Program-made: the position numbers and the translations under genes
Part shown: positions 1,116 through 25,003 of the stretch, one piece after another
How positions within the stretch are numbered: the first letter of the stretch is position 1
How the letters are laid out: every line of letters begins with the position of its first letter
Assembly: GCA_030644725.1 (NCBI GenBank)
Contig: CP130629.1
Coordinates: 4,479,501-4,543,500 of the forward strand
DNA length: 64,000 nucleotides
Direction: 5' to 3'
Origin: Candidatus Electrothrix communis
Lineage (GTDB): Bacteria > Desulfobacterota > Desulfobulbia > Desulfobulbales > Desulfobulbaceae
The notes under the pieces: model-generated
Told to the model about the DNA's origin: nothing
What the model saw: the letters and a program-made list of their open reading frames with translations, nothing else
The model's database searches: none

Positions 1116-1324
1116 GATGTTCAGCCCGTTTGCACGATTAGTAGAGAAATTTACCAAGTTATAACATCATATATAATGTTTTCATAACATTTTTTTGTAC
1201 TGGAGATGCTGCGTACTCCCTTGACCATGTCGATACCGCACTATGGGGGGAATCCGTCACAATTACGGCGGCAGACTGGTGGATATACTGGAGCTGAAAT
1301 CCTATTGACTTTTCTCTCCGTTTT

Positions 1325-1356
1325 CCCTGACAATGTACTATTAGCCATTGTCAGGG
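1325..1356. repeat. Perfect 11-bp inverted repeat upstream of the Yip1-like gene
   Basis: CCCTGACAATG at 1325-1335 is exactly repeated in inverse at 1346-1356, with a 10-nt spacer. It lies 46 bases before the start of the next gene and has no T-run behind it. An operator or an RNA leader hairpin fits better than an intrinsic terminator. The rest of 1116-1401 is AT-rich and shows no gene. Confidence 0.6.
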
Positions 1357-1401
1357 AGTGTTGCCTGCGCCCTGATCAACACCATATAACGGAGGCAAAA
1401 G

Positions 1402-2016
1402 ATGGAAGACACCAGCAAGCAGCACCTGAATCCTTGGTTTTCGATGTGGACGCAGCCGCGCGCCACAATCCAGCAGATAATTGATGACGACCCGGAACAC
1501 ATGGTACTGCTACTGGCAGCTCTAGCAGGGTTTGTTCAAGCATTAGAGATGACCACCGTCAATACGGGCAGCAGTTACGATTGGCTTTTTCGCTTGCTTC
1601 TTATCGTGATAGCTGGGCCAATTGGCGGCATAATATGGTTATACATAAACAGTGCCCTGATTCATTGGACAGGAGAGGGAAGCGGAGGGCAAGCCTCAAC
1701 AGAGGATATTCGAGCCGCAATAGCCTGGGCCTTTATTCCGATACTATGGACATCCCTGTTCCTACAGCCTTTGCTTGCCTTGTTCGGCGGCCAGCAGCCG
1801 TCACCGGAAGGTAATCCAAGCACTCCTATCCTTGTTGGGTTGGGCCTGATTCAAAATATAGCAGAGGTATGGGCCTTTGTCGTCTTTCTAAAGAGTTTGG
1901 CTCAAGTGCAGAGATTCTCTGTCTGGGACGCTTTGTGTAATTCTTTCAAGGCCTTGTTTGTTATCGGAATTGCGGGGATGGTACTATACAAACTCATCTT
2001 TTCAATTTTTTTGTAA
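1402..2016 (+). CDS. Yip1-like integral membrane protein
   Basis: 204 residues with a soluble N-terminus carrying an NPWFSMWTQPRATIQQII segment, followed by about five hydrophobic helices (roughly residues 35-52, 60-80, 105-127, 145-165 and 180-203). The NPW...P.AT...I opening and the helix pattern are typical of bacterial Yip1-domain proteins, whose function is poorly known. GGAGG at 1392-1396 lies just ahead of the ATG and fixes the start. The gene appears to stand alone, with the 11-bp inverted repeat in its leader. The family assignment is by pattern, so it is moderately sure. Confidence 0.65.
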   Translation: MEDTSKQHLNPWFSMWTQPRATIQQIIDDDPEHMVLLLAALAGFVQALEMTTVNTGSSYDWLFRLLLIVIAGPIGGIIWLYINSALIHWTGEGSGGQASTEDIRAAIAWAFIPILWTSLFLQPLLALFGGQQPSPEGNPSTPILVGLGLIQNIAEVWAFVVFLKSLAQVQRFSVWDALCNSFKALFVIGIAGMVLYKLIFSIFL

Positions 2017-2031
2017 CAGAGAAGTCAGATG

Positions 2032-2115
2032 CTGGCGGAGGCGGCGCTGCGGCAGGGCGACTTGCTAGCTATGTATAGGGGGAAACCAGCAGATCGTGTT
2101 CACCAAATGGGCGGG
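2032..2115 (+). pseudogene. Relic of an RND efflux operon (includes a 32-nt copy of the pump gene)
   Basis: Bases 2084-2115 are identical over 32 nt to 2694-2725 inside the RND pump gene downstream. The bases before them (2032-2080) can be read as MLAEAALRQGDLLA, the kind of helical segment found in RND partner proteins, but this is only suggestive. No long frame survives. The rest of 2017-2489 shows no gene. The natural reading is that the membrane-fusion or outer-membrane partner genes were once here and were deleted, leaving the pump alone. Confidence 0.55.
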
Positions 2116-2489
2116 ATGCACGCCATACCCTCAGTGATAAATCAATCCTCTGTCTGACTCGGATGATAATCCAACTTCGTAAAACCGGCAGCCATCAACC
2201 CCAGGTCTCGCCAGCATCTACCTGAAACTGCTCATCTAAAAACCGTTGAGCAAGTCAACGCTAATCAGTCAAATAAAAAATATCAATTGGTATTTATTAT
2301 TGATTAGTTCAAAGATGCAGCAAAAAAATGTCACCAAGCGACATAAAACGTCTGAACCCACTCCTTACGATGACGCTGAACAGGGAAAGAAATAACATTG
2401 GAAGATCATATTGTATGCCGTACAATAGCTCAGACTGTTCAAACACTCCGTATCAGCACGGCAACCAACCATCCTGCCAAACATAAGCA

Positions 2490-8890: not shown

Positions 8891-10462
8891 TCAATTTGAA
8901 TAAGAGCAACATCCGCCTTTGCTTGCACGATAGTAAGTGTCAAAATTTTTTCCTTTAGCATACTGCGGACACTTTTCCCTTGCTTTGCGGACAAAGCTTG
9001 ATTCACAACTTATACGATAGGCTTCACCGCAGGCAATGTCCGGATTATCAGTCATTCCGGCGAATTCTGCCGAACTGCCGATCACCTCTGACACCGAGCA
9101 AAATAATTCTGCACTCATTTCTCCACTTGCTGTTCCCATTTTTGAGCACTCGTTGCTTATCCCCGCCGTTTCGAGATTGTCTTTATTTGAATTTTTTTGT
9201 GGATTGCTGGAGTGTCCGCCGCGCACCAGACGGACCGTTATTTTGCCTTCCTTGCCGATGCTGATACCATCATAGTGGCAAATGAATTTGACACCCCACG
9301 CGAAGCGGGTGTCGTCAGAAGCTGGCGTTCGAGACCAGTAATGGGGGACTTGATCTGTGTTCGGAAAAATCTGTTGATTAACTTTCTGATAATCATTGGA
9401 GCCTTTGTTGCAATATAACAAAGCTGTTAGTTCGTCGATTGTGGGCAGTCGCCAATCTGTATAACCGGCATACTCAACATTCTTGAATCGTTGCACTGCA
9501 TCATTCCATGAATATTTCCTCACCTCACCTTTCTCGCAGTTCTCACCGCTCAAACCTTCCGAGCAACGTTTCCACATAAGGCCGGTTTCAGCGTCCTTTA
9601 TTGTGCCATCGCGGTTGTCAATATACTTTCCTATCTTGATTTTTTCTGCTGTATCTGAATTATCTTTATTTGAATTTTTTTGTGGATTGCTGGAGTCAGG
9701 AGGGATGAAGTAAAATGGCTTCTCGCCATAAAGGCCTGAAGCAGTCCAAGGGATCTGTTTTTTATCGCTTTCCCTGCCGACTTGATAACTGACTCTTCTG
9801 AACAGCTCTTCTATTGTCAGCCCCGGAGTCTCAAGTGTTTTGAGTAATTTCTCTGTGTACAGGCCGTTACGTCCCATTAAGTTGTCACTAGCCACGCTCC
9901 CTGGAGCAGTGGAATAAGCAATAAATGCACCTCTCGTATCCATTGCGGCAAGCCCCTCATTTAAAGAACGAAACCCTTTGGACGGATTATTCCGACATGC
10001 ATCCAGTATCACAATATTCACCTTGCTGCCAGCCGATTCCATCTTGGAAAGGACAAACCCTGCTTGAACACTTTTATATTTTATTTCTTCCGGTCCATAT
10101 ATTGTCTGACCGACCGGCAAAAGATAGTTTGTTCCATCTATTTGCACCCCATGCCCGCTAAAATAAAACAGTGCGACCCCGCCGGGTTCAACTCTTTGTC
10201 CGAACTCACGAAGGGAACGTTCCATTTCCTGGTGCGTCAAATTTATCTTTTTGATGACATCAAATCCTAGCCGACCGAGTGCTTCAGATAAGTCGTTCGC
10301 ATCATTGATAGGATTTTTCAATGGCGCATCCTGATAATCTTTATTGCCGATAACAAGAGCAATCCTGTCTGACGCGCAAAGTCCGTCATGGCACCATAGA
10401 AACCCTATCAGGCTGGCTATTATAACATAATGTTTTTTTCTCATGACTGTCATCTTGCTCAT
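8891..10462 (-). CDS. Secreted caspase-like (C14) peptidase with DUF1566 and a Cys-rich tail
   Basis: 523 residues. The N-terminus RKKHYVIIASLIGFLWC...CAS is a signal peptide, best read from the Met at residue 7. The caspase domain spans about 32-250, with the catalytic dyad His104 in FSGHGVQ and Cys156 in VILDACRNNP. A DUF1566-type domain follows at about 275-415 (DNRDGTIKDAETGLMWKRC, YTDWRLPTIDELTAL). The C-terminus holds six or more cysteines, suggesting disulfides outside the cytoplasm. The linker SSNPQKNSNKDN occurs twice, on each side of DUF1566, and is an exact 34-bp DNA repeat. The gene lies behind a CsgG-like secreted protein on the same strand. Substrate unknown. Confidence 0.85.
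   Translation of the reverse strand: MSKMTVMRKKHYVIIASLIGFLWCHDGLCASDRIALVIGNKDYQDAPLKNPINDANDLSEALGRLGFDVIKKINLTHQEMERSLREFGQRVEPGGVALFYFSGHGVQIDGTNYLLPVGQTIYGPEEIKYKSVQAGFVLSKMESAGSKVNIVILDACRNNPSKGFRSLNEGLAAMDTRGAFIAYSTAPGSVASDNLMGRNGLYTEKLLKTLETPGLTIEELFRRVSYQVGRESDKKQIPWTASGLYGEKPFYFIPPDSSNPQKNSNKDNSDTAEKIKIGKYIDNRDGTIKDAETGLMWKRCSEGLSGENCEKGEVRKYSWNDAVQRFKNVEYAGYTDWRLPTIDELTALLYCNKGSNDYQKVNQQIFPNTDQVPHYWSRTPASDDTRFAWGVKFICHYDGISIGKEGKITVRLVRGGHSSNPQKNSNKDNLETAGISNECSKMGTASGEMSAELFCSVSEVIGSSAEFAGMTDNPDIACGEAYRISCESSFVRKAREKCPQYAKGKNFDTYYRASKGGCCSYSN
9180..9213. repeat. Direct repeat (copy 1 of 2) encoding a linker in the caspase-like gene
   Basis: These 34 bases recur exactly at 9663-9696. 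Both copies encode the linker NPQKNSNKDN in the same frame, one on each side of the DUF1566 domain. Exact DNA identity argues for recent duplication or gene conversion of a domain boundary, not selection on the peptide alone. Confidence 0.9.
9663..9696. repeat. Direct repeat (copy 2 of 2) encoding a linker in the caspase-like gene
   Basis: Second exact copy of the 34-bp unit at 9180-9213. The two copies bracket the DUF1566-coding segment of the caspase-like gene. Recombination between them would delete that domain in frame (483 bp apart, divisible by three). Confidence 0.9.
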
Positions 10463-15354: not shown

Positions 15355-15572
15355 AACAATGCAATATCATACAGCCCATCCTTCAGCTTTGTTATGATCT
15401 CTCTGTCCAATGGATGATCGGCTATGATCAGAAAATCCCAGTCAGAATCCTGCCGGGCTTCATTACGGGCACGGGAGCCATGCAGAATTACTTTCGCATC
15501 AGGCAGCAGACGATGCACTTCTTCCCGCACCTGATGCGGGATCTTGACCTGATTAACCAAATAAGTTACCAT
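15355..15572 (-). pseudogene. N-terminal half of a MntA-like nucleotidyltransferase
   Basis: The ATG at 15572 opens MVTYLVNQVKIPHQ, followed by the intact nucleotidyltransferase motif HGSRARNEARQDSDWDF (GS...DxD). After KDGLYDI the frame departs from the family and runs into the tail of the fic gene on the other strand, stopping at 15276. The missing C-terminal half is found about 960 bp away at 16187-16440. In MNT/HEPN modules this protein AMPylates the HEPN toxin; no HEPN gene is seen here. Confidence 0.75.
15361..15468. repeat. About 108-bp direct repeat (copy 1) flanking the TumA/TumE genes
   Basis: CAATATCATACAGCCCATCC and the following bases match 16323-16431 with about ten differences. 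Both copies code for the same central part of a nucleotidyltransferase on the minus strand. They enclose the TumA/TumE pair. Confidence 0.85.
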
Positions 15573-16190: not shown

Positions 16191-16440
16191 ATAGGGGGCG
16201 CACCAAGTTTCACTACACTCTCTTTCTCCACCGCCTTTTTGAACGGCAACGCATCGTATTCAGGCGAAGACCACTCCTGCCTCCTCCGTATAATGCTGCT
16301 CATCATCTCATCATTTTCCAGTTCAATATCATACAGCCCATCCTTCAGCTTTGTTATGATCTCTCGCTCCAGCGAATGATCGGCTATGATCAAAAAATCC
16401 CGGTCAGAGTCCTGCCGGGTTGCATTGGCGGACGCGAGAA
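16187..16440 (-). pseudogene. C-terminal half of the MntA-like nucleotidyltransferase
   Basis: On the minus strand the frame reads QDSDRDFLIIADHSLEREI, KDGLYDIELENDEMMSSII and ends FKKAVEKESVVKLGAPPI at 16187. It lacks the N-terminus and the GS motif. Together with 15355-15572 it would make one complete protein of about 120 residues. Its stop is interleaved with the TumE stop on the other strand. Confidence 0.75.
16323..16431. repeat. About 108-bp direct repeat (copy 2) flanking the TumA/TumE genes
   Basis: Second copy of the unit at 15361-15468. It ends at the upstream edge of the M1-ChaN-PDZ gene region, so the junction with the next gene lies here. Confidence 0.85.
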
Positions 16441-16606
16441 CCGTGCAAAGAGCTCACCTCCCTCCAACATTCCTCCATTCCCCCGGTTTTTCCTTTCACC
16501 TGACGTATCTCCTTGCAATTTCCAAGATCATACGATAGTGATTGAAAAAGTCTGTTTCAAAGACGGAACCAAATTCACAAAAATCACCTCTGCACCACGG
16601 AATTCT

Positions 16607-19600
16607 ATGCCTACCTTCCTGCTCCCTTGTTTATTATTCATGACCTTTTTTCTCTCCTCACCTTCGTTGCTCCATTGTGCTGAAGAAGCTCCTGCTTCGG
16701 ATGCCCCGGAGCCCCTGCGTCAGGATATCCAGGTTACCTTTGACCTTGTATCCTCTGAGATGCAGGGCAAAGCCACTCTCGTTCTACCGCCGGAGAGAGA
16801 GCTAGAACTCTCGTTGAGTGAGCTGGAACACGTACGGATAGAGATTTCAGAAACAGGGCAGGGGGGAATCGACGAAGAACCCATCCCGCAAGAAATCGCT
16901 CCGAACAGCGACAACACCCTAACCCTGCCCCCGGCAGCACAGGAGCGTACTCTTTCCTTGAGCTGGCAAATAACAGCTCCGCCACCCGGCCACGACACAG
17001 GTAATCTGATCACCCCCCAAGGCATCACCCTGACCGGTCTTTGGCATCCGACAACGGGTGAGAACATGATTTTCTCTCTGAATGCGGAGCTGCCGCCCGG
17101 CTTTTCCGGGGTAACCGAGGCTGATGAGATAGAAATTGCAACAGACGGGGAGCAACAAATCCTCAAGGCAACAGCTCCCCAGCCCCTCCAGACCATTAAC
17201 TTTGCTGCCGGACCGTACACCGTTCTCTCGCGCCAGCTCAACAATTTGATCCTTTATAGCTATTTCTTTGCAGAAGATGAAGAGCTCGCCCCGGCCTATC
17301 TGGACCGGGCTGTGGAATACGTTCAGCGCTATGAAACGCTGATTGGCCCCTTTCCCTATAAACGATATTCCATTGTCGAGAATCGGCTGCCCACCGGCTA
17401 TGGCATGCCGAGTTTCACCCTCTTGGGGCAGGCGGTCGTTCGACTGCCCTTTATCAAGGATATCTCCTTGGGACACGAGGTCCTTCATTCTTGGTTCGGC
17501 AATGCGATTGATAATGATGCGGGTGGGAACTGGTGCGAAGGACTGACCACCCTGCTGGCGGATCAAACCTATGCCGAAGAAAAGGGCAACGGCGCAGCCT
17601 CTCGCAAAAACCAGCTCCTCCGCTATCAGGCCTATGTCGGGCAGAATAATGAGGTTGCTGTGCTGGATTTTCAGCATGGTGGCGATTCCCAGCCCATGGC
17701 TCGGAAAATGCGGGCTGTCGGCTATGATAAGACGAGCATGCTCTTCCATACCCTGCGCCGGGAGATCGGTGATGAGTATTTCTTTGCCGCGCTTCGGCAA
17801 TTCTATCAGGACAGAAAATATGCTCATGCCAATTGGTCCGACCTGGAAAACACCTTTGCCGCAACCTCAGGCCGCGATCTCTCCTCGTTTTTCAGCCAAT
17901 GGCTGTCCCGCACAGATATTCTCTCCTTTACTGTGGAGCAGGTCGGGATGGAGCAAAAAGGGGGCAGCTCTGTGGTTTCCTTTCATCTCGTCCAGCAGAA
18001 TGATAAACCATACCATTTCCGTTTGCCGGTCATCGTCAAGACGCGCCAGAAAACGATCCACGAGACCATCATGATCGACTCAGCAGATCAGGAGGTGACG
18101 ATCACGGTGCCCAGCCTGCCCATAGAGTTGGTCATTGACCCGGAATATGACCTGATGCGTACATTGGACACCAAAGAGCGTCCCCCTGTCTGGATGCACT
18201 TTATGGGGGCAAAGCAGAAGACAGTGGTCTTGCCGGATAACGAGGCCAGCCAGCCCTTTTACCTCCCCCTGATGACGGAGCTTCAACGCTGGGGCTGTCG
18301 CTTGGTTAAGGCCGAGGAGTTGAAAAACAGCGAGCTGTTGCAGGGAAGTTTTCTCTTCCTGGGTAGCTCTTCCCAGAGCCGGGCACTCTTCGGGACAATT
18401 GAGGCTGAGGAAACCGGTTTCAGCCTTGATGTACGTACAAACCCCCTCAACCAAGAACAGGTCATGGTGCTGATTTCATCGGCCTCTGTGGCGGAAAGCC
18501 AAAACGCCTTACCCAAACTCAGGCATTACGGCAAGTATTCCCGCCTCCTTTTTCATAGCGGCAGGATACAGGAAAAGCAGATCGCTCCGGCTGATAACGG
18601 CATCCGTCTGCCCCTGCTCAAGCCTGCTGTCGGTTTTCCTGTCCCGCAGGTTCAAGGATTTTCGGCCATTCTCAACGATATCTCCCAAAGCAGAGTCATC
18701 TACGTGGGGGAAACGCATACAGATTACGGGACTCATCTTCTTCAATTGCAGGTTGTCCAGGCCCTGCGGGAACAGCTGGACCAGGAGAAGCAGAAGGGGG
18801 AAAATGTGGGTCTGGTCATCGGGATGGAGATGTTCCCCCGTTCCTCCCAGCATGCTCTGGACGGCTACATCAACGGAACCATCCCCACGGAGCAAGATTT
18901 TCTTCGCCTCTCTGATTATTATGAGGTCTGGGGCTATGATTACCGCATGTACCGGGATATTATCAATTATGCCAAGGCGCATCGCATTCCTATCATCGCG
19001 TTGAATCTCAATAAAAAAATTGTCAGCAAGGTCTTCAAAACAGGATCAACCGATGAGCTGACACCGGAACAACTCACCGAGGCGGCATCGGACCGTGCCC
19101 TGGATCTTGCCAGCTATCGGGAGCGTCTTGCCCAGGTCCATGCCATGCATAAGGAACCGGAAAAAAGCGGCGGGTTCGGAGGATTCCTCCAGGCCCAGGC
19201 CATATGGGATGAAACTATGGCTGAATCCATTGCCGAGTATCTTCAGGACCATCCTGAAAAAAAGATGGTGGTTCTGGCCGGGACAGGCCATGTGTATAAG
19301 GACAGTGCCATGCCGCCCAGGGTGGCTCGCCGGGTGGATGGCCGTCAGTCCGTGCTCATTGCCAATAACGGCCAGGTCACCGGTGCGGAAAAGGGTTGGC
19401 AGGCCGATTACCTGATGTTCACCGAGGATGTTGAGTTGCCGCCTGCCGGGAAGATTGGAGTGATGCTCAAAGAGGAGGAGAAGACCGAAGATCGGCCCTC
19501 AAGGGTGGAGGTCCTTGATATAAGTCCCTTGGGTAAGGCCGGTGAGGCTGGCTTGCAAAAAGGAGATGTTATCTTAGCGGTGGACAATGCTCAGGTCGCC

Positions 19601-19756
19601 ACCATCGGTGATCTGAAAATAGCTCTTCTTGATAAAAAGCCTGGGGAGATGGTTCAGCTCAATATCGTCAGAAAGGATACGATGGTGGACATCAAGGTGG
19701 AGCTGTCTGATATGGAGAAGGCTGCCATGATGCCGCCTGGGCATCCTAAGAAGTAG
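16607..19756 (+). CDS. Secreted M1-like metallopeptidase fused to ChaN and PDZ domains
   Basis: 1049 residues from the ATG at 16607, whose product opens with a signal peptide (MPTFLLPCLLFMTFFLSS). The reading frame is open further upstream into the nucleotidyltransferase relic, but that part is not protein-like. Three parts follow. First, a gluzincin peptidase has zinc motif GHEVLHSW near residue 289 and the third ligand in NWCEGLTTL near 309. Second, a ChaN/DUF399 (haem-binding, Tiki-like) domain at about 685-930 carries VIYVGETHTDYGTH, IGMEMFPR and LAGTGHVY. Third, a C-terminal PDZ domain at about 955-1040 carries GEAGLQKGDVIL. The mature protein should act in the periplasm or on the surface. 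Linking a peptidase to a haem/iron domain suggests processing of haemoproteins, which is an inference. Confidence 0.85.
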   Translation: MPTFLLPCLLFMTFFLSSPSLLHCAEEAPASDAPEPLRQDIQVTFDLVSSEMQGKATLVLPPERELELSLSELEHVRIEISETGQGGIDEEPIPQEIAPNSDNTLTLPPAAQERTLSLSWQITAPPPGHDTGNLITPQGITLTGLWHPTTGENMIFSLNAELPPGFSGVTEADEIEIATDGEQQILKATAPQPLQTINFAAGPYTVLSRQLNNLILYSYFFAEDEELAPAYLDRAVEYVQRYETLIGPFPYKRYSIVENRLPTGYGMPSFTLLGQAVVRLPFIKDISLGHEVLHSWFGNAIDNDAGGNWCEGLTTLLADQTYAEEKGNGAASRKNQLLRYQAYVGQNNEVAVLDFQHGGDSQPMARKMRAVGYDKTSMLFHTLRREIGDEYFFAALRQFYQDRKYAHANWSDLENTFAATSGRDLSSFFSQWLSRTDILSFTVEQVGMEQKGGSSVVSFHLVQQNDKPYHFRLPVIVKTRQKTIHETIMIDSADQEVTITVPSLPIELVIDPEYDLMRTLDTKERPPVWMHFMGAKQKTVVLPDNEASQPFYLPLMTELQRWGCRLVKAEELKNSELLQGSFLFLGSSSQSRALFGTIEAEETGFSLDVRTNPLNQEQVMVLISSASVAESQNALPKLRHYGKYSRLLFHSGRIQEKQIAPADNGIRLPLLKPAVGFPVPQVQGFSAILNDISQSRVIYVGETHTDYGTHLLQLQVVQALREQLDQEKQKGENVGLVIGMEMFPRSSQHALDGYINGTIPTEQDFLRLSDYYEVWGYDYRMYRDIINYAKAHRIPIIALNLNKKIVSKVFKTGSTDELTPEQLTEAASDRALDLASYRERLAQVHAMHKEPEKSGGFGGFLQAQAIWDETMAESIAEYLQDHPEKKMVVLAGTGHVYKDSAMPPRVARRVDGRQSVLIANNGQVTGAEKGWQADYLMFTEDVELPPAGKIGVMLKEEEKTEDRPSRVEVLDISPLGKAGEAGLQKGDVILAVDNAQVATIGDLKIALLDKKPGEMVQLNIVRKDTMVDIKVELSDMEKAAMMPPGHPKK

Positions 19757-20501
19757 GAGGCTTCTTACTCTGCCTGGATTGATTCTGCTTCCTACTGATT
19801 TTACCACTGATTTTAGAAATCTCCTTTAGAAGTATTTCGTTTCCAACTCGGAGAGATAAGGGATGATCCGGGTCTATTTTTTGGAGAAGAAGATAACAAA
19901 ATATTGCCCTGGTCATGTTACCTGATCTGGCATGTAAGGTGCCGATGATAGAATGAAATGAACGGGCTTCACTGATGTGGTAGGTCGTGCGGGAAGCGGG
20001 GAAATGATAGTGTATTTCTAGCTTATTTTTGAAAATATTTCGTATTTCCCTGTGGTTGCCTCTGCTGAGGTGATATTCTGCCAGCGTTATTTTGCCGAAC
20101 AGGTAATCAGGAAATAATTTCACTGTGTCATGAAGTATTTCTTTGTATTTGTCGAGTTGTTGAGAATTTTCATAAGCAACGCCGAGATAATTGTACAGTA
20201 CCGGAAGGTTAGGGTGTTTTTCTTTGAGTTGTAACAAGATGGGGATTTGTTTGGTCGGCTCTGTATAAACTCGCTGGAGAATGTTATTGATTTTATTCTT
20301 CTCTGCAACCGACAACTTTGCAAAATGTTCTTCTTCGACAGGCTCAGTTGTCCATTTGATTGGTTGAGGAAGCCCGTCTTTGCTTCTTTTCAGGGACGCT
20401 ATTATCTTGTGCTCGTCCACCTCTTTCAGGAACGCTTTGGCATTTGGCGTTTTTCTTTCGACAAGGCATTGAATTAATTTGAACGTGTTAAGGTAACTCA
20501 T
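19746..20501 (-). CDS. TPR-like helical-repeat protein
   Basis: 251 residues with TPR-type helical pairs between about 75 and 220 (LPVLYNYLGVAYENSQQLDKY, LFGKITLAEYHLSRGN, IIGTLHARSGNMTRA, LQKIDPDHPLSLRVGNEIL). The C-terminus is very basic (KISRKQNQSRQSKKPPTS). No signal peptide, so cytoplasmic. It lies 90 bases downstream of the STAND NTPase gene on the same strand and is probably its partner. Its stop overlaps the M1-ChaN-PDZ gene end by 11 bases from the opposite strand. Confidence 0.6.
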   Translation of the reverse strand: MSYLNTFKLIQCLVERKTPNAKAFLKEVDEHKIIASLKRSKDGLPQPIKWTTEPVEEEHFAKLSVAEKNKINNILQRVYTEPTKQIPILLQLKEKHPNLPVLYNYLGVAYENSQQLDKYKEILHDTVKLFPDYLFGKITLAEYHLSRGNHREIRNIFKNKLEIHYHFPASRTTYHISEARSFHSIIGTLHARSGNMTRAIFCYLLLQKIDPDHPLSLRVGNEILLKEISKISGKISRKQNQSRQSKKPPTS

Positions 20502-20591
20502 ATCTTTTTTTTGTTTGAGAGAGTTGAATGTAAAGCTCGTTTGCCCGTCTATGCATCACATGGAAGATCTGGGCGGGAGCCTGAATTTTAA

Positions 20592-23500
20592 TCAAGATTT
20601 TTTCTTGGGAGCTACACAGTCAATGCCGATGACATGTAGAGCCTCTACGTTGGCTGACGATGCCTTGATACTGTCAGCTTGTTGTTGCAAATATTCAACC
20701 AGCACAGAAAGTGGCTGTCCATTTTTGCCGTCAGGTATATTCCATTTTTTCTCATCAAGGCGGAACAGCACGAGAATACCATGCCGACTGTTGTCTCCCT
20801 TGAGATATTGCCCTACAAGCTGTCTTTGCAGAGTATCGCTTGATAGCGATTTGGCGTAATAATTTCGTGTTCTATCGATAGGTTTGATCTCAATGCAGAC
20901 GTTGCCGTGCTTGCAGCTCACTTGAATATCTGGTTTTTTGTCGTTATCAAGCTCCTCTTCCCGATGCACGCTGAAACGCCGATGCTGTGTGTCCCGTAAT
21001 TTGGCCGCGAGCCAGTGCTGCAAATCCTTTTCAGGCATTCCAGGAGAGAAGAGACATCGTTCACTGAACGGGCCTTCTTCAATGCCTTTTTTGATTTCTT
21101 CCAATCTGGCCAGAACTTGCTGGAAAAGCTGTGCTTCGCTTTGCGGATTAGTTTGAAACACTGAACCAATATTACGGAGTTTGGCAGGTTCAATAATTGC
21201 TGCTGCCTGTGCTGTATGGGCGGCGTGTTTTGTTCGTTCTGCAAGAAGCCAATCACGAACCTCTAGGTTTGCTTTTTCTTCGGATAAGTTGGTGAGAATA
21301 TCATGCGCAACCCGGCCCGGCGTTTGAACCAGCATATTGACAATATGGTTCCGTAGTTCTGGAACAGGCTCGAACGGTTCGGTTTTCTTATTTTCGCCAG
21401 CCTCCTTTGCTGAGGAGATATATGCATTCAGGCGGTTGAATAATTTGACGAGGATATCTGCGGCATGATCAATTTGATCCGGCTGCATCTGTATCCAATT
21501 GGGAGATTCATATCGGCTGGCTTTTGCAAAGTACTCAAACTGCTTGTCTGCGTTTTTACCGATCTGCTTCAAGTGGTTTTCAAACCAGTTCCAGGCAGCA
21601 ACTATGTCTGTTGCTAGCCAAAGATACAGCCAGCGTATATCCTTGACTAATTTGTCGTTATCCAGCAACGTACCCTGTACTTTGCAGATTTCGGCAATTT
21701 TCTCCGAAGAAAGCAAGTTGTCTTCATAGAGAGTTTTAACAAGGTTGAGTAGCAGATCTACGTTTTGAATTTCATCATTCTTGATTAACGGAATAATTGG
21801 TTGCAGCAATTTAGTACGAACTTTTTTGGAGCATTGTAATGCCAATACTATCGTGCGAGAAAATTGACTCGTTGATTTTGCTTCTTTGACTATCCACGGA
21901 CGCAGGGCTTTGCAGACCTCTGAGCTATGGATTTCCGCAAGGCGTTCAAACCAAGAAAGTGAATTTTGCTGCTCCCAGATAGCCAGATATGCCGCACGGC
22001 TAATTTCGTCATGATTGAAAGAGGATATTGAGTCAGGATAGTTTGTAATTTCTGCTGTTACAGCCGCAAGCAGGTAACTTTCCTTAAAGCGTGTTCCGTT
22101 TAGATTGTGCTCATCAGGAGTAGCTATCTTTTCGGTTCTCCAATACCTTTTCATTCCAGCAGTCAGAGCATCTGCAATATCTTGTCCGAAATCTTTCTTG
22201 ATCAAATCAAGATCAATGCGAGATCTCTCTTGATCTGTTGAATGGTTGAACGAATAATCGATAAGCCATTGCAGTAATCCTTTGTGTGAACCATCACGTA
22301 TCTGATCAATATTAGCCAGTAGATTAGCTTTATTTTCCTGCCGTTTTTCTTTCTTCTTTCTACGTTTTTCAGCTTCCTCCTTGCGTTGATTTTGTAACGA
22401 ATCTATGCGTTCTTTCCGACGCCCTTTGATATGTTTTTGTCGAATTGCGGCCTCTGGGCCAACAGCCAAAGCATTGATAGCTTCTGATCGTAACCGTCCG
22501 CGAAGCGTGGTATAGAAGGAAATATTAAAAGTGATATGGAACCAAATAGTACGTTCCTCTTCTGTTAGATCCAAATTGTTTGCCCGCTTGGTCAGCTCTG
22601 GAAGATCATCATGATCAAAGCTGATAGTTTGGGAATCAGTATGATTCTTGTACCAGAATGATTTTCTGACCGTTTCAAGTCCTTGGGAAAGAGCTATCTC
22701 CAAGGCAATCTGGTAGCGCAGATGATGATGTTGGGCTATCAGTTTTCGTAACCGCTCAATCTTATTTTGGTGGCTGTTATTATATTGTTGTGCCTCGATA
22801 TGTTCAGCCGCATCAATGCAGACTTGGGGATATGATGTGCTGGACTTAGGTAGTATCTCAAGCATACGTTCATAGCAGGGCGGAAGGACTCTGTTGAGCC
22901 ATGTTATCTTTTCAGATATTCTGGAAAAACGAGTTGCCGGTTCAGGTTGAGGCAAAGCAGTCACGATGGCACTCAGGAGTAATTCTGCGAAGTTGCTGTC
23001 ATTGATTGCGGGTAACAGACTGTGTTGGACACAGTCCGACATAGGGCTAAAATCATAACGATCTTCATCAGCAACAACTTTGAAAATGCTCGAAAGCTGT
23101 TCAACGGTCAGGCTTTTCCAGTCAATGACGGGCAAGGCTGCTGCAATAAGCTCATTTGTTGTCAGCTTACCGGTAAGCAGATCCTTTTTGATTGCAGCAC
23201 GTTGTTCCTGTGTGCCAACCTCCTCCAATATGGCTAACGCCCAACCCCGTTCACCGTCCGGCTTTTTTGCATCTTGGTAAATATTGAAGGCAACTTTCGC
23301 GCAATCAGTTAAACGCGCAAACTTGGCATAGGAAAACAGCGTTACTCGTATCCGTTCCGGCTGATTCGGCTCGGCAAGCAATGAGGCAATTTTACCGGCA
23401 GAAAGCCTGCGGCCAACCCGTCGGTATTCGCTGGCATCGTTGTGCCAGTCGGTTCGCAATCCATCTTGCAACCGCTGAAGATATGCCATAAAGGCCCGGT

Positions 23501-24767
23501 CTGCTGAAAGCTCATCCCAAGATTCCGGATCACCATCAAAGGCGATCATTTCCGGAAAGTTATTCGTCACCCACTCCCGAACGTTGGCATTAATGGTCGC
23601 AAGCCAGCATAATGCCCAGCGGCGGCTCGGAATCAGTACGAGTTCACCGAACGGGGCCGCAGAAAAAAGGTCTATCGCTTTCTGCACCGGCCAACCTTTC
23701 TCGATTCGTCGCTTCACCCAACAGGCTGCCAGGTATTCCCGTACAGAACGATGGTGGAATTTCACCCGGCTATAGGTTGCCACGTCAAAAATAGCTGAGG
23801 CAAGAAGGCGCATGATTTCCGGCTCGTTCCAATTGGTCAGGACGGCTGACGGGACAACTTCGTTATCTCTGGGCACAGCAACCGTTACGATATGGTGGCG
23901 ACCGGAAAACTCTGCTGCGGCAGCCAGTTTTTCCGCACCGCGTCGCAGCTTTTTTGGCGAGAGCAGAAACTTGTCGGCGGTTTTGTAATTGGTGTTTGTT
24001 TCCGTGAGCCGATTAGTTAAGTTTCCCTTGATCAATGCCAGATAGTTGCCGAACTTTTTCTTCTGATTCCAAAGAGCAATCAGCCATTCAAGATCAAGCG
24101 GACTAGTGGCCATGTACCAGTAATTACCGCGATTGATTGCACGCCAGAATTCTTCGCTATTCTCCACATTTTTTTCGGACGCAAAACGCTGCGCTTCAGC
24201 TTTTGAGAGCCGATTAAGCGAGACAACAAAAGGTTCGGTCTGCTGGTTAATTGGTTTGACCAGTAATTCAGTTACAGCTTCTTGGACTTCTTTTTGTCCC
24301 CAGTCTGTCCAGCGACTGGAGATAACCACTTTTATGCGTGAAAAATGCGCCTTCAGGCTCGTCTTCACAACTAAAAGTGCTCTCCTAAAAACGTCATGGC
24401 CTTTTAATCTTGACTCATCTATCGCATCAAAAAAGAAATAACCAACCTCAGATGAGGTTGACCATGTTGTGTAATCAGTACCGTTCTGATCTGTAACAAG
24501 TTCCCAATCATCTTTTGTCGCAAGCTGGTTCAGCTCAACGAAAAAGGCCACCTCATCCCTATTTTGAAGCCGCTTAATTTCATTCTTGAACTCGCTGGTT
24601 TTGCCGATTCCTGCCTCACCGACAACAACGGTAACGGCGTTTTCGTACAGCTTGGGCCAAGTGAGTTCTTCCTTGTCACGATTAAGATACTGAAGCCACT
24701 CATCCTGTTCGTCTTGCAGCTCTTTAGCGGGAGAAAAGGTACGGTGAAGATCAATTAAGTCAGTCAA
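20592..24767 (-). CDS. STAND/NACHT-type NTPase with C-terminal PD-(D/E)XK-like nuclease motif
   Basis: 1391 residues. The P-loop is GEAGIGKT at 50-57, Walker B is YFFFDAIDES at about 110-119 (a NACHT-like DxxDE), and a sensor Arg lies in VVISSRWTDW. VKFHHRSVREYLAA fits the winged-helix end of the STAND module. A long helical-repeat region follows (about 350-1200), with a Lys/Arg/Glu-rich coiled segment near 800-830. The last 130 residues carry KPDIQVSCKHGNVCIEIKP (Asp1280, Glu1293, Lys1295), the PD-(D/E)XK nuclease pattern. Known Avs-type STAND defence proteins usually have the nuclease at the N-terminus; here it is at the C-terminus. The region is AT-richer than the flanking hyp operon, suggesting transfer. 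A TPR gene follows. Confidence 0.75.
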   Translation of the reverse strand: MTDLIDLHRTFSPAKELQDEQDEWLQYLNRDKEELTWPKLYENAVTVVVGEAGIGKTSEFKNEIKRLQNRDEVAFFVELNQLATKDDWELVTDQNGTDYTTWSTSSEVGYFFFDAIDESRLKGHDVFRRALLVVKTSLKAHFSRIKVVISSRWTDWGQKEVQEAVTELLVKPINQQTEPFVVSLNRLSKAEAQRFASEKNVENSEEFWRAINRGNYWYMATSPLDLEWLIALWNQKKKFGNYLALIKGNLTNRLTETNTNYKTADKFLLSPKKLRRGAEKLAAAAEFSGRHHIVTVAVPRDNEVVPSAVLTNWNEPEIMRLLASAIFDVATYSRVKFHHRSVREYLAACWVKRRIEKGWPVQKAIDLFSAAPFGELVLIPSRRWALCWLATINANVREWVTNNFPEMIAFDGDPESWDELSADRAFMAYLQRLQDGLRTDWHNDASEYRRVGRRLSAGKIASLLAEPNQPERIRVTLFSYAKFARLTDCAKVAFNIYQDAKKPDGERGWALAILEEVGTQEQRAAIKKDLLTGKLTTNELIAAALPVIDWKSLTVEQLSSIFKVVADEDRYDFSPMSDCVQHSLLPAINDSNFAELLLSAIVTALPQPEPATRFSRISEKITWLNRVLPPCYERMLEILPKSSTSYPQVCIDAAEHIEAQQYNNSHQNKIERLRKLIAQHHHLRYQIALEIALSQGLETVRKSFWYKNHTDSQTISFDHDDLPELTKRANNLDLTEEERTIWFHITFNISFYTTLRGRLRSEAINALAVGPEAAIRQKHIKGRRKERIDSLQNQRKEEAEKRRKKKEKRQENKANLLANIDQIRDGSHKGLLQWLIDYSFNHSTDQERSRIDLDLIKKDFGQDIADALTAGMKRYWRTEKIATPDEHNLNGTRFKESYLLAAVTAEITNYPDSISSFNHDEISRAAYLAIWEQQNSLSWFERLAEIHSSEVCKALRPWIVKEAKSTSQFSRTIVLALQCSKKVRTKLLQPIIPLIKNDEIQNVDLLLNLVKTLYEDNLLSSEKIAEICKVQGTLLDNDKLVKDIRWLYLWLATDIVAAWNWFENHLKQIGKNADKQFEYFAKASRYESPNWIQMQPDQIDHAADILVKLFNRLNAYISSAKEAGENKKTEPFEPVPELRNHIVNMLVQTPGRVAHDILTNLSEEKANLEVRDWLLAERTKHAAHTAQAAAIIEPAKLRNIGSVFQTNPQSEAQLFQQVLARLEEIKKGIEEGPFSERCLFSPGMPEKDLQHWLAAKLRDTQHRRFSVHREEELDNDKKPDIQVSCKHGNVCIEIKPIDRTRNYYAKSLSSDTLQRQLVGQYLKGDNSRHGILVLFRLDEKKWNIPDGKNGQPLSVLVEYLQQQADSIKASSANVEALHVIGIDCVAPKKKS

Positions 24768-24821
24768 AAGAGATGCTCCTGGGAAAGGCGAGTTTGACGG
24801 ATCATGATGACTTTGCGAAAA

Positions 24822-24869
24822 TTACCCTTACAAAAATCAGTTTCTGTGTATTTTTTACCCTTACAAAAA
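24822..24869 (-). promoter_or_regulatory. Direct repeats in the leader of the STAND gene
   Basis: Read on the minus strand, TTTTTGTAAGGGTAA occurs twice (24855-24869 and 24822-24836), 33 bases apart, or about three helical turns. The copies lie 55-102 bases before the start codon. Identical spaced direct repeats at this place suggest a regulator-binding site. Confidence 0.45.
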
Positions 24870-25003
24870 GCCCATCTCTTGAGGAACCTTGCAATGTCGG
24901 CCTGCCGAGTCTGCATAAAGACACTAAAATAACATACACCCAGCCGGGAGAATTTACCAGTGGAGATAGGGGGATACTCCCGGTTTACTGACCTTCCAAC
25001 CAC

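What the first reader, a model, noticed from the sequence alone, without database searches (positions are those of the whole stretch)
19746..24767. STAND NTPase with the nuclease at its C-terminus plus a TPR partner: candidate conflict system
Seen: P-loop GEAGIGKT, Walker B YFFFDAIDES, a long helical-repeat body, and KPDIQVSCKHGNVCIEIKP at the extreme C-terminus; a basic TPR gene follows 90 bases later on the same strand. Known: Avs and bNACHT defence proteins use STAND modules with an effector, usually at the N-terminus. Inference: this is a two-gene anti-phage or suicide system with reversed domain order. It lies in a toxin-rich island, is AT-richer than the hyp operon, and carries spaced direct repeats in its leader.
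Basis: partly seen in the sequence, partly recalled or inferred. Interest (0 to 1): 0.75.

Follow-up and report, generated by a model that had tools for sequence, protein, structure and literature searches.

The report
HyoA-like NACHT nuclease, exchangeable defence cassette
A bacterium of the cable-bacteria family carries a distant relative of a known single-protein anti-phage system (HyoA), an immune-receptor-like switch with a DNA-cutting domain at its tail; the small gene next to it is not its own partner but sits behind several unrelated defence genes in sister genomes.

Summary
In detail: a 1391-aa STAND/NACHT ORF (20592-24767, minus) and a basic 251-aa TPR ORF 90 bp downstream. The large protein is not an unknown architecture. 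It aligns end to end with NCBIfam NF058534, "NACHT domain-containing antiphage protein HyoA" (733 bits, E 6e-220), but stays below that family's equivalog cut-off (1200 bits) and forms its own long branch with a 72%-identical protein from Candidatus Electronema. The C-terminal nuclease is supported: E1246, E1270, D1280, E1293, K1295, Q1316 and Y1321 are invariant in homologues about 20-30% identical, and the profile aligns in register with NucS-like PD-(D/E)XK nucleases. A prophage homologue has a transmembrane tail instead, as expected of an exchangeable C-terminal effector. There is no N-terminal effector, so "reversed order" is right, but it is general in this family. The two-gene claim fails: other HyoA relatives lack the TPR gene. 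In sister genomes the same TPR follows a Lamassu-like nuclease-STAND gene or a methyltransferase pair, and the hyoA leader with its paired repeat also precedes the Lamassu-like gene. I read this as an exchangeable defence gene in a conserved leader/TPR frame. Phage defence by this copy is inferred, not shown.

The parts
20592..24767 (-). hyoA-like gene, 1391-aa STAND/NACHT ATPase with C-terminal PD-(D/E)XK nuclease
   Evidence: ORF; NF058534 HyoA 733 bits end to end; 72% identical homologue in Candidatus Electronema; dN/dS 0.22
24776..24780 (-). Shine-Dalgarno-like AGGAG, 8 nt before the TTG start
   Evidence: sequence; upstream block and TTG start conserved in G034 and G004
24597..24620 (-). 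Walker A, GEAGIGKT (residues 50-57)
   Evidence: position; G55 and K56 invariant in 14-16 homologues
24411..24440 (-). Walker B, YFFFDAIDES (residues 110-119)
   Evidence: position; D114, D117, E118 invariant
21378..23450 (-). helical-repeat body, approximate residues 440-1130, likely sensor
   Evidence: helical in the model as far as residue 560; least conserved part of the alignment; sensor role inferred
20595..21050 (-). C-terminal PD-(D/E)XK nuclease domain, residues 1240-1391
   Evidence: E1246, E1270, D1280, E1293, K1295, Q1316, Y1321 invariant; profile match to NucS-like nucleases in register, 29.6 against at most 16.7 in 60 shuffles; a homologue hits the NucS model here
19746..20501 (-). 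TPR gene, 251 aa, pI 9.7; genus-level companion of several unrelated defence genes, not HyoA-specific
   Evidence: copies 75-92% identical behind other genes in sister genomes
20502..20600 (-). spacer in front of the TPR gene, conserved with it even when the upstream gene differs
   Evidence: blocks 19758-20601 (92%) in G004 and G013 and 19809-20600 (82%) in G005
24824..24869 (-). paired direct repeat TTTTTGTAARGGT (24824-24836 and 24857-24869), 33 bp between starts, in the leader
   Evidence: exact at the same spacing in the G003 LmuA-STAND leader and the G004 hyoA-remnant leader
24768..25003 (-). leader between hypE and hyoA, parts of it shared with leaders of other defence genes in the genus
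   Evidence: 163 bp 86% in G003, 101 bp 84% in G004, 73-76 bp in G007 and G001

Best explanation
A single-protein NLR-like antiphage receptor of the HyoA type. The N-terminal NACHT/STAND ATPase (about residues 37-440) is the switch and the helical-repeat body (about 440-1130) the likely sensor. On sensing an infection product the protein would bind ATP, oligomerise and bring together its C-terminal PD-(D/E)XK nuclease domains, which then cut phage and/or host DNA (abortive infection or direct interference). Shown by sequence: relation to HyoA, intact ATPase and nuclease catalytic residues, no N-terminal effector, purifying selection, and a swapped C-terminus in a prophage homologue. Inferred: oligomerisation, the trigger, DNA as substrate, and phage defence by this copy. 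Genomically it is one of several interchangeable defence genes found in this genus between a related leader and a near-constant TPR gene.
For: End-to-end match to NF058534 HyoA; invariant Walker and PD-(D/E)XK residues; NucS-like profile in register, above all shuffles and control segments; NucS model hit by homologue L020; transmembrane tail instead of the nuclease in the P2-like prophage homologue L057; homologues on 55 plasmid records, solitary, near IS elements, R-M, SIR2 or HEPN genes; patchy in the phylum, 13 of 395 genomes; low GC and dN/dS 0.22; not at this locus in sister genome G003; TPR gene and leader shared with other defence genes.
Against: Below the HyoA equivalog cut-off (733 against 1200 bits) and only about 22% identical to members above it. 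The nuclease model has pLDDT 40 and Foldseek finds nothing; hhalign probability is only 23-51%. PADLOC has no hit. No experimental data; the paper describing HyoA was not found.
Confidence: 0.78

Rival explanations
1. A true two-gene system: the TPR protein is a required partner (sensor, adaptor or inhibitor) of this HyoA-like protein.
For: Same strand, 90-bp gap; TPR under purifying selection, dN/dS 0.15; the shared TPR could be a general partner of several defence genes.
Against: No TPR gene beside the Electronema orthologue or the other HyoA-type loci read. Same TPR behind an LmuA-STAND gene and a methyltransferase pair in sister genomes, and alone with remnants in G004 and G013.
Confidence: 0.1
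2. A genus-specific defence frame: the leader and TPR gene are a conserved frame into which defence genes are exchanged by recombination, and the TPR protein is an accessory or regulator used by all of them. This is compatible with the best explanation and concerns the surroundings.
For: Same TPR with its spacer behind three unrelated defence genes, and the same leader before two of them.
Against: Few genomes (six with the TPR gene). The TPR gene may be only a passenger or a recombination anchor. The leader similarity is partial in G005, G007 and G001.
Confidence: 0.3
3. A housekeeping or signalling STAND regulator not concerned with phages, for example in programmed cell death or colony-level recognition in a multicellular bacterium.
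For: STAND proteins are frequent in multicellular bacteria (PMC10907252); the flanking hypE and ChaN/PDZ genes are chromosomal core genes.
Against: Not kept at this locus in G003; family on plasmids and in a prophage; named antiphage family.
Confidence: 0.07

Closest known systems
HyoA (NCBIfam NF058534, NACHT domain-containing antiphage protein)
   Same: Full-length co-linear match, N-terminal NACHT without a preceding effector, long repeat body, C-terminal PD-(D/E)XK residues
   Different: 733 bits against a cut-off of 1200; about 22% identity; separate long branch; TPR gene and paired-repeat leader next to it
EruA (NCBIfam NF058535)
   Same: Related NACHT antiphage protein of similar length
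   Different: Only 197 bits against a cut-off of 1000; outside the clade of the window protein in the tree
bNACHT25/bNACHT32 (clade 6 bNACHT)
   Same: NACHT plus PD-(D/E)XK DNase as effector (PMC12169576)
   Different: Nuclease at the N-terminus and NCH1 sensor at the C-terminus there; the order is opposite here
Avs (AVAST) STAND NTPases
   Same: STAND ATPase plus repeat sensor; Avs4 is the best PDB match of the N-terminal model
   Different: N-terminal effectors in Avs; no PADLOC Avs model hit; weak structural match
Lamassu-type LmuA nuclease plus STAND gene of G003 and G007
   Same: Occupies the same position in front of the TPR gene; in G003 also the same leader
   Different: N-terminal Cap4/LmuA-like nuclease fused to another STAND NTPase; no BLAST similarity to the HyoA-like protein

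Membership tests
HyoA (NF058534) | Full-length co-linear match to the model | tested here: met
   residues 7-1384 on model 1-1427 of 1430
HyoA (NF058534) | Score above the curated equivalog cut-off of 1200 bits | tested here: not met
   733 bits; hence 'HyoA-like', not HyoA
HyoA (NF058534) | Groups with proteins above the cut-off rather than with EruA | tested here: inconclusive
   Same large clade (100/99), apart from EruA, but on its own long branch outside the main HyoA group
HyoA (NF058534) | Protection against phage that needs the ATPase and nuclease | not testable with these tools
   Needs plating assays
STAND/NACHT ATPase | Walker A and B with acidic DxxDE | tested here: met
   invariant G55, K56, D114, D117, E118
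PD-(D/E)XK nuclease | Conserved Glu (helix), Asp, ExK and downstream QxxxY in order | tested here: met
PD-(D/E)XK nuclease | Restriction-endonuclease-like fold | tested here: inconclusive
   AlphaFold pLDDT 40, no Foldseek match
EruA (NF058535) | Score above the cut-off of 1000 bits | tested here: not met
   197 bits
Avs/bNACHT with N-terminal effector | Effector domain before the STAND module | tested here: not met
   P-loop at residue 50; no domain before it
Two-gene HyoA-TPR system | TPR gene conserved beside homologues | tested here: not met
   absent in the other HyoA-type loci examined

The most novel reading that the evidence does not exclude
In this genus a small basic TPR protein and a paired-repeat leader form a fixed frame into which unrelated defence effectors (HyoA-like, LmuA-STAND, methyltransferase pair) are swapped, and the TPR protein is a general accessory that regulates or assists whichever defence gene is loaded.
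Probability: 0.25. Interest if true: 0.6.

Novelty: new variant of a known kind. Interest (0 to 1): 0.4.

Why it matters
It adds a divergent branch to a NACHT antiphage family whose effector sits at the C-terminus rather than the N-terminus, and the natural nuclease-to-transmembrane swap at that end (L057) makes C-terminal effector exchange directly testable. It also points to a defence cassette with a shared leader and TPR gene in the cable-bacteria family, for which a search of the held papers found little on phage defence.

Tried and rejected
PADLOC: no hit for either protein. PDB sequence search with the whole protein and with the C-terminal profile: nothing relevant. Pfam on 15 C-terminal domains: nothing. 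Profile comparison with Mrr_cat: no match. The first NucS alignment held two wrong ORFs (L104, L114) and was rebuilt without them; both versions are reported. Literature for HyoA and EruA as NACHT proteins: not in the library; the EruA of PMC12839154 is an unrelated E. coli regulator. The DefensePredictor paper does not name HyoA. The in-frame TAG reported for the TPR homologues was considered as recoding or decay and rejected: it is the ordinary end of slightly shorter genes.

Full report
Observation. The two ORFs, motifs, spacing, strand, composition difference and leader repeats are all as described. The TTG start is supported by an AGGAG 8 nt upstream and by its conservation in two other genomes.

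Origin. The only hit in the named genome collection is a Candidatus Electronema MAG, 71-72% identical over the full length (locus L029). The genome search holds the same contig (G034, same length) in the window's family.

What the protein is. NCBIfam gives the decisive result: NF058534, 'NACHT domain-containing antiphage protein HyoA', E 6.4e-220, residues 7-1384 on model 1-1427 of 1430, 733 bits against a curated cut-off of 1200; EruA (NF058535) is a weaker match at 197 bits. PADLOC and PDB sequence searches are empty and Pfam gives only sub-threshold AAA/NACHT-type hits. Other proteins in the same genus do pass the HyoA cut-off (L014 1299, L015 1294 bits), as does a Vibrio plasmid protein (L053, 1638 bits). 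A tree of 22 sequences puts the window and Electronema proteins in the HyoA-type clade, apart from EruA, on their own branch of length 1.93 outside the main HyoA group. It is HyoA-like, not a HyoA equivalog.

N-terminus. The P-loop starts at residue 50 and family-wide conserved residues start at 7-11, so there is no room for an N-terminal effector. Walker residues are invariant. An AlphaFold model of residues 1-560 (pLDDT 61, three-sequence alignment) has Avs4 bound to a phage portal as its best PDB match (E 9e-4, low TM-score), which fits a STAND fold but is not strong.

C-terminus. In 14-15 homologues E1246, E1270, D1280, E1293, K1295, Q1316, L1317 and Y1321 are invariant, the order expected of a PD-(D/E)XK nuclease. 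A profile of the domain aligned to profiles of NucS-like proteins collected from the phylum scores 29.6 and 34.3 with the Glu, Asp and ExK in register; four other segments of the same protein score at most 17.2, and 60 column shuffles at most 16.7. One homologue hits the NucS NCBIfam model with this region (E 8e-4). The hhalign probability is only 23-51%, and the structure prediction failed (pLDDT 40), so the nuclease call rests on conserved residues and profile register, not on a fold.

Effector swapping. The viral-contig homologue L057 lies between tail, baseplate and lysis-type genes on one side and portal and terminase genes on the other, which I read as a P2-like phage. Its NACHT part aligns with the window protein (24% over residues 2-545), but it ends in a hydrophobic, transmembrane-like segment instead of the nuclease. 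P2-like prophages are known to carry defence hotspots (PMC9122126). This is independent support for the C-terminus being the effector position.

Context of the family. tblastn finds homologues in 55 plasmid records, 29 of them typed conjugative. The annotated examples are single genes near IS elements, type III R-M, SIR2 or HEPN genes. In the phylum 13 of 395 genomes carry a match. This is the patchy, mobile distribution of a defence gene.

The TPR gene. It has copies 75-92% identical in five other genomes. In G003 (L030) it follows within a few bases a 1355-aa gene with a Cap4/LmuA-like nuclease and a STAND NTPase; in G007 (L033) it follows the same gene, interrupted by a transposase-like ORF; in G005 (L032) it follows a DNA methyltransferase and an ORF that I read as endonuclease-like; in G004 and G013 it follows remnants of that pair. 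It is absent beside the Electronema hyoA and the other HyoA-type loci read. The conserved unit is the TPR gene plus its ~100-bp spacer, ending near the stop of whichever gene stands in front. The pairing with the HyoA-like gene is one combination among several.

The leader. 163 bp of the hyoA leader are 86% identical to the leader of the LmuA-STAND gene in G003, and 101 bp are 84% identical to the leader of a broken hyoA in G004 (about 28 codons, then unrelated sequence with a stop). Both keep the pair TTTTTGTAARGGT with exactly 33 bp between starts. Two further pairs with one mismatch, in G007 and G010, lie upstream of related AAA ATPase genes in the opposite orientation. The pair looks like a regulatory site; this is inference.

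The site. In G003 the ChaN gene and hypE enclose a different 577-aa TPR gene and no hyoA. Conversely, the slot beside cusA (my reading of the efflux-pump gene) that holds the cassette in G003, G005 and G007 corresponds to window 1131-2120, which lacks it. The cassette therefore occupies different chromosomal slots. In Electronema hyoA stands directly behind a cusB-like gene.

Mechanism. Best reading: sensing by the repeat body, ATP-dependent oligomerisation, activation of the C-terminal nuclease, DNA damage and abortive infection, by analogy with bNACHT25 and bNACHT32, where the nuclease active site is needed and DNA is degraded on infection (PMC12169576). Every step after the domain assignments is inferred.

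Limits. The paper defining HyoA was not in the library, so whether its mechanism or C-terminal nuclease has been described could not be checked. The endonuclease-like reading of L032:7440-8513 rests on its sequence alone (Pfam gave one sub-threshold hit, PADLOC none). Several HyoA-type loci were read with only about 1.5 kb of flank.

Noticed in passing
15362-15541 and 16213-16447: A dispersed repeat (~90% identical copies also in G004; short matches at many places in other genomes of the genus) runs into the 5' end of the ChaN/PDZ ORF; its annotated start at 16376 is probably too early, the real one being nearer the signal-peptide-like MPTFLLPCLLFMTFF.
   Followed up: partly
16376-19756: Large protein joining a peptidase M1-like domain, a ChaN-like haem-binding domain and a PDZ domain; core gene in the genus (72-87% identical).
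   Followed up: partly
8891-10462: Caspase-like peptidase (Peptidase_C14) with an Lcl_C domain, possible conflict or cell-death gene.
   Followed up: no
L013:1230-1414: Broken hyoA remnant (leader plus about 28 codons) in sister genome G004, next to copies of the window's dispersed repeat.
   Followed up: partly
L057:5995-9921: HyoA-like NACHT gene in a P2-like phage contig with a transmembrane-like C-terminus in place of the nuclease.
   Followed up: partly
L100:1501-1546 and L097:1501-1546: The paired 33-bp-spaced repeat also lies upstream of related AAA ATPase genes in G007 and G010, in the opposite orientation.
   Followed up: partly
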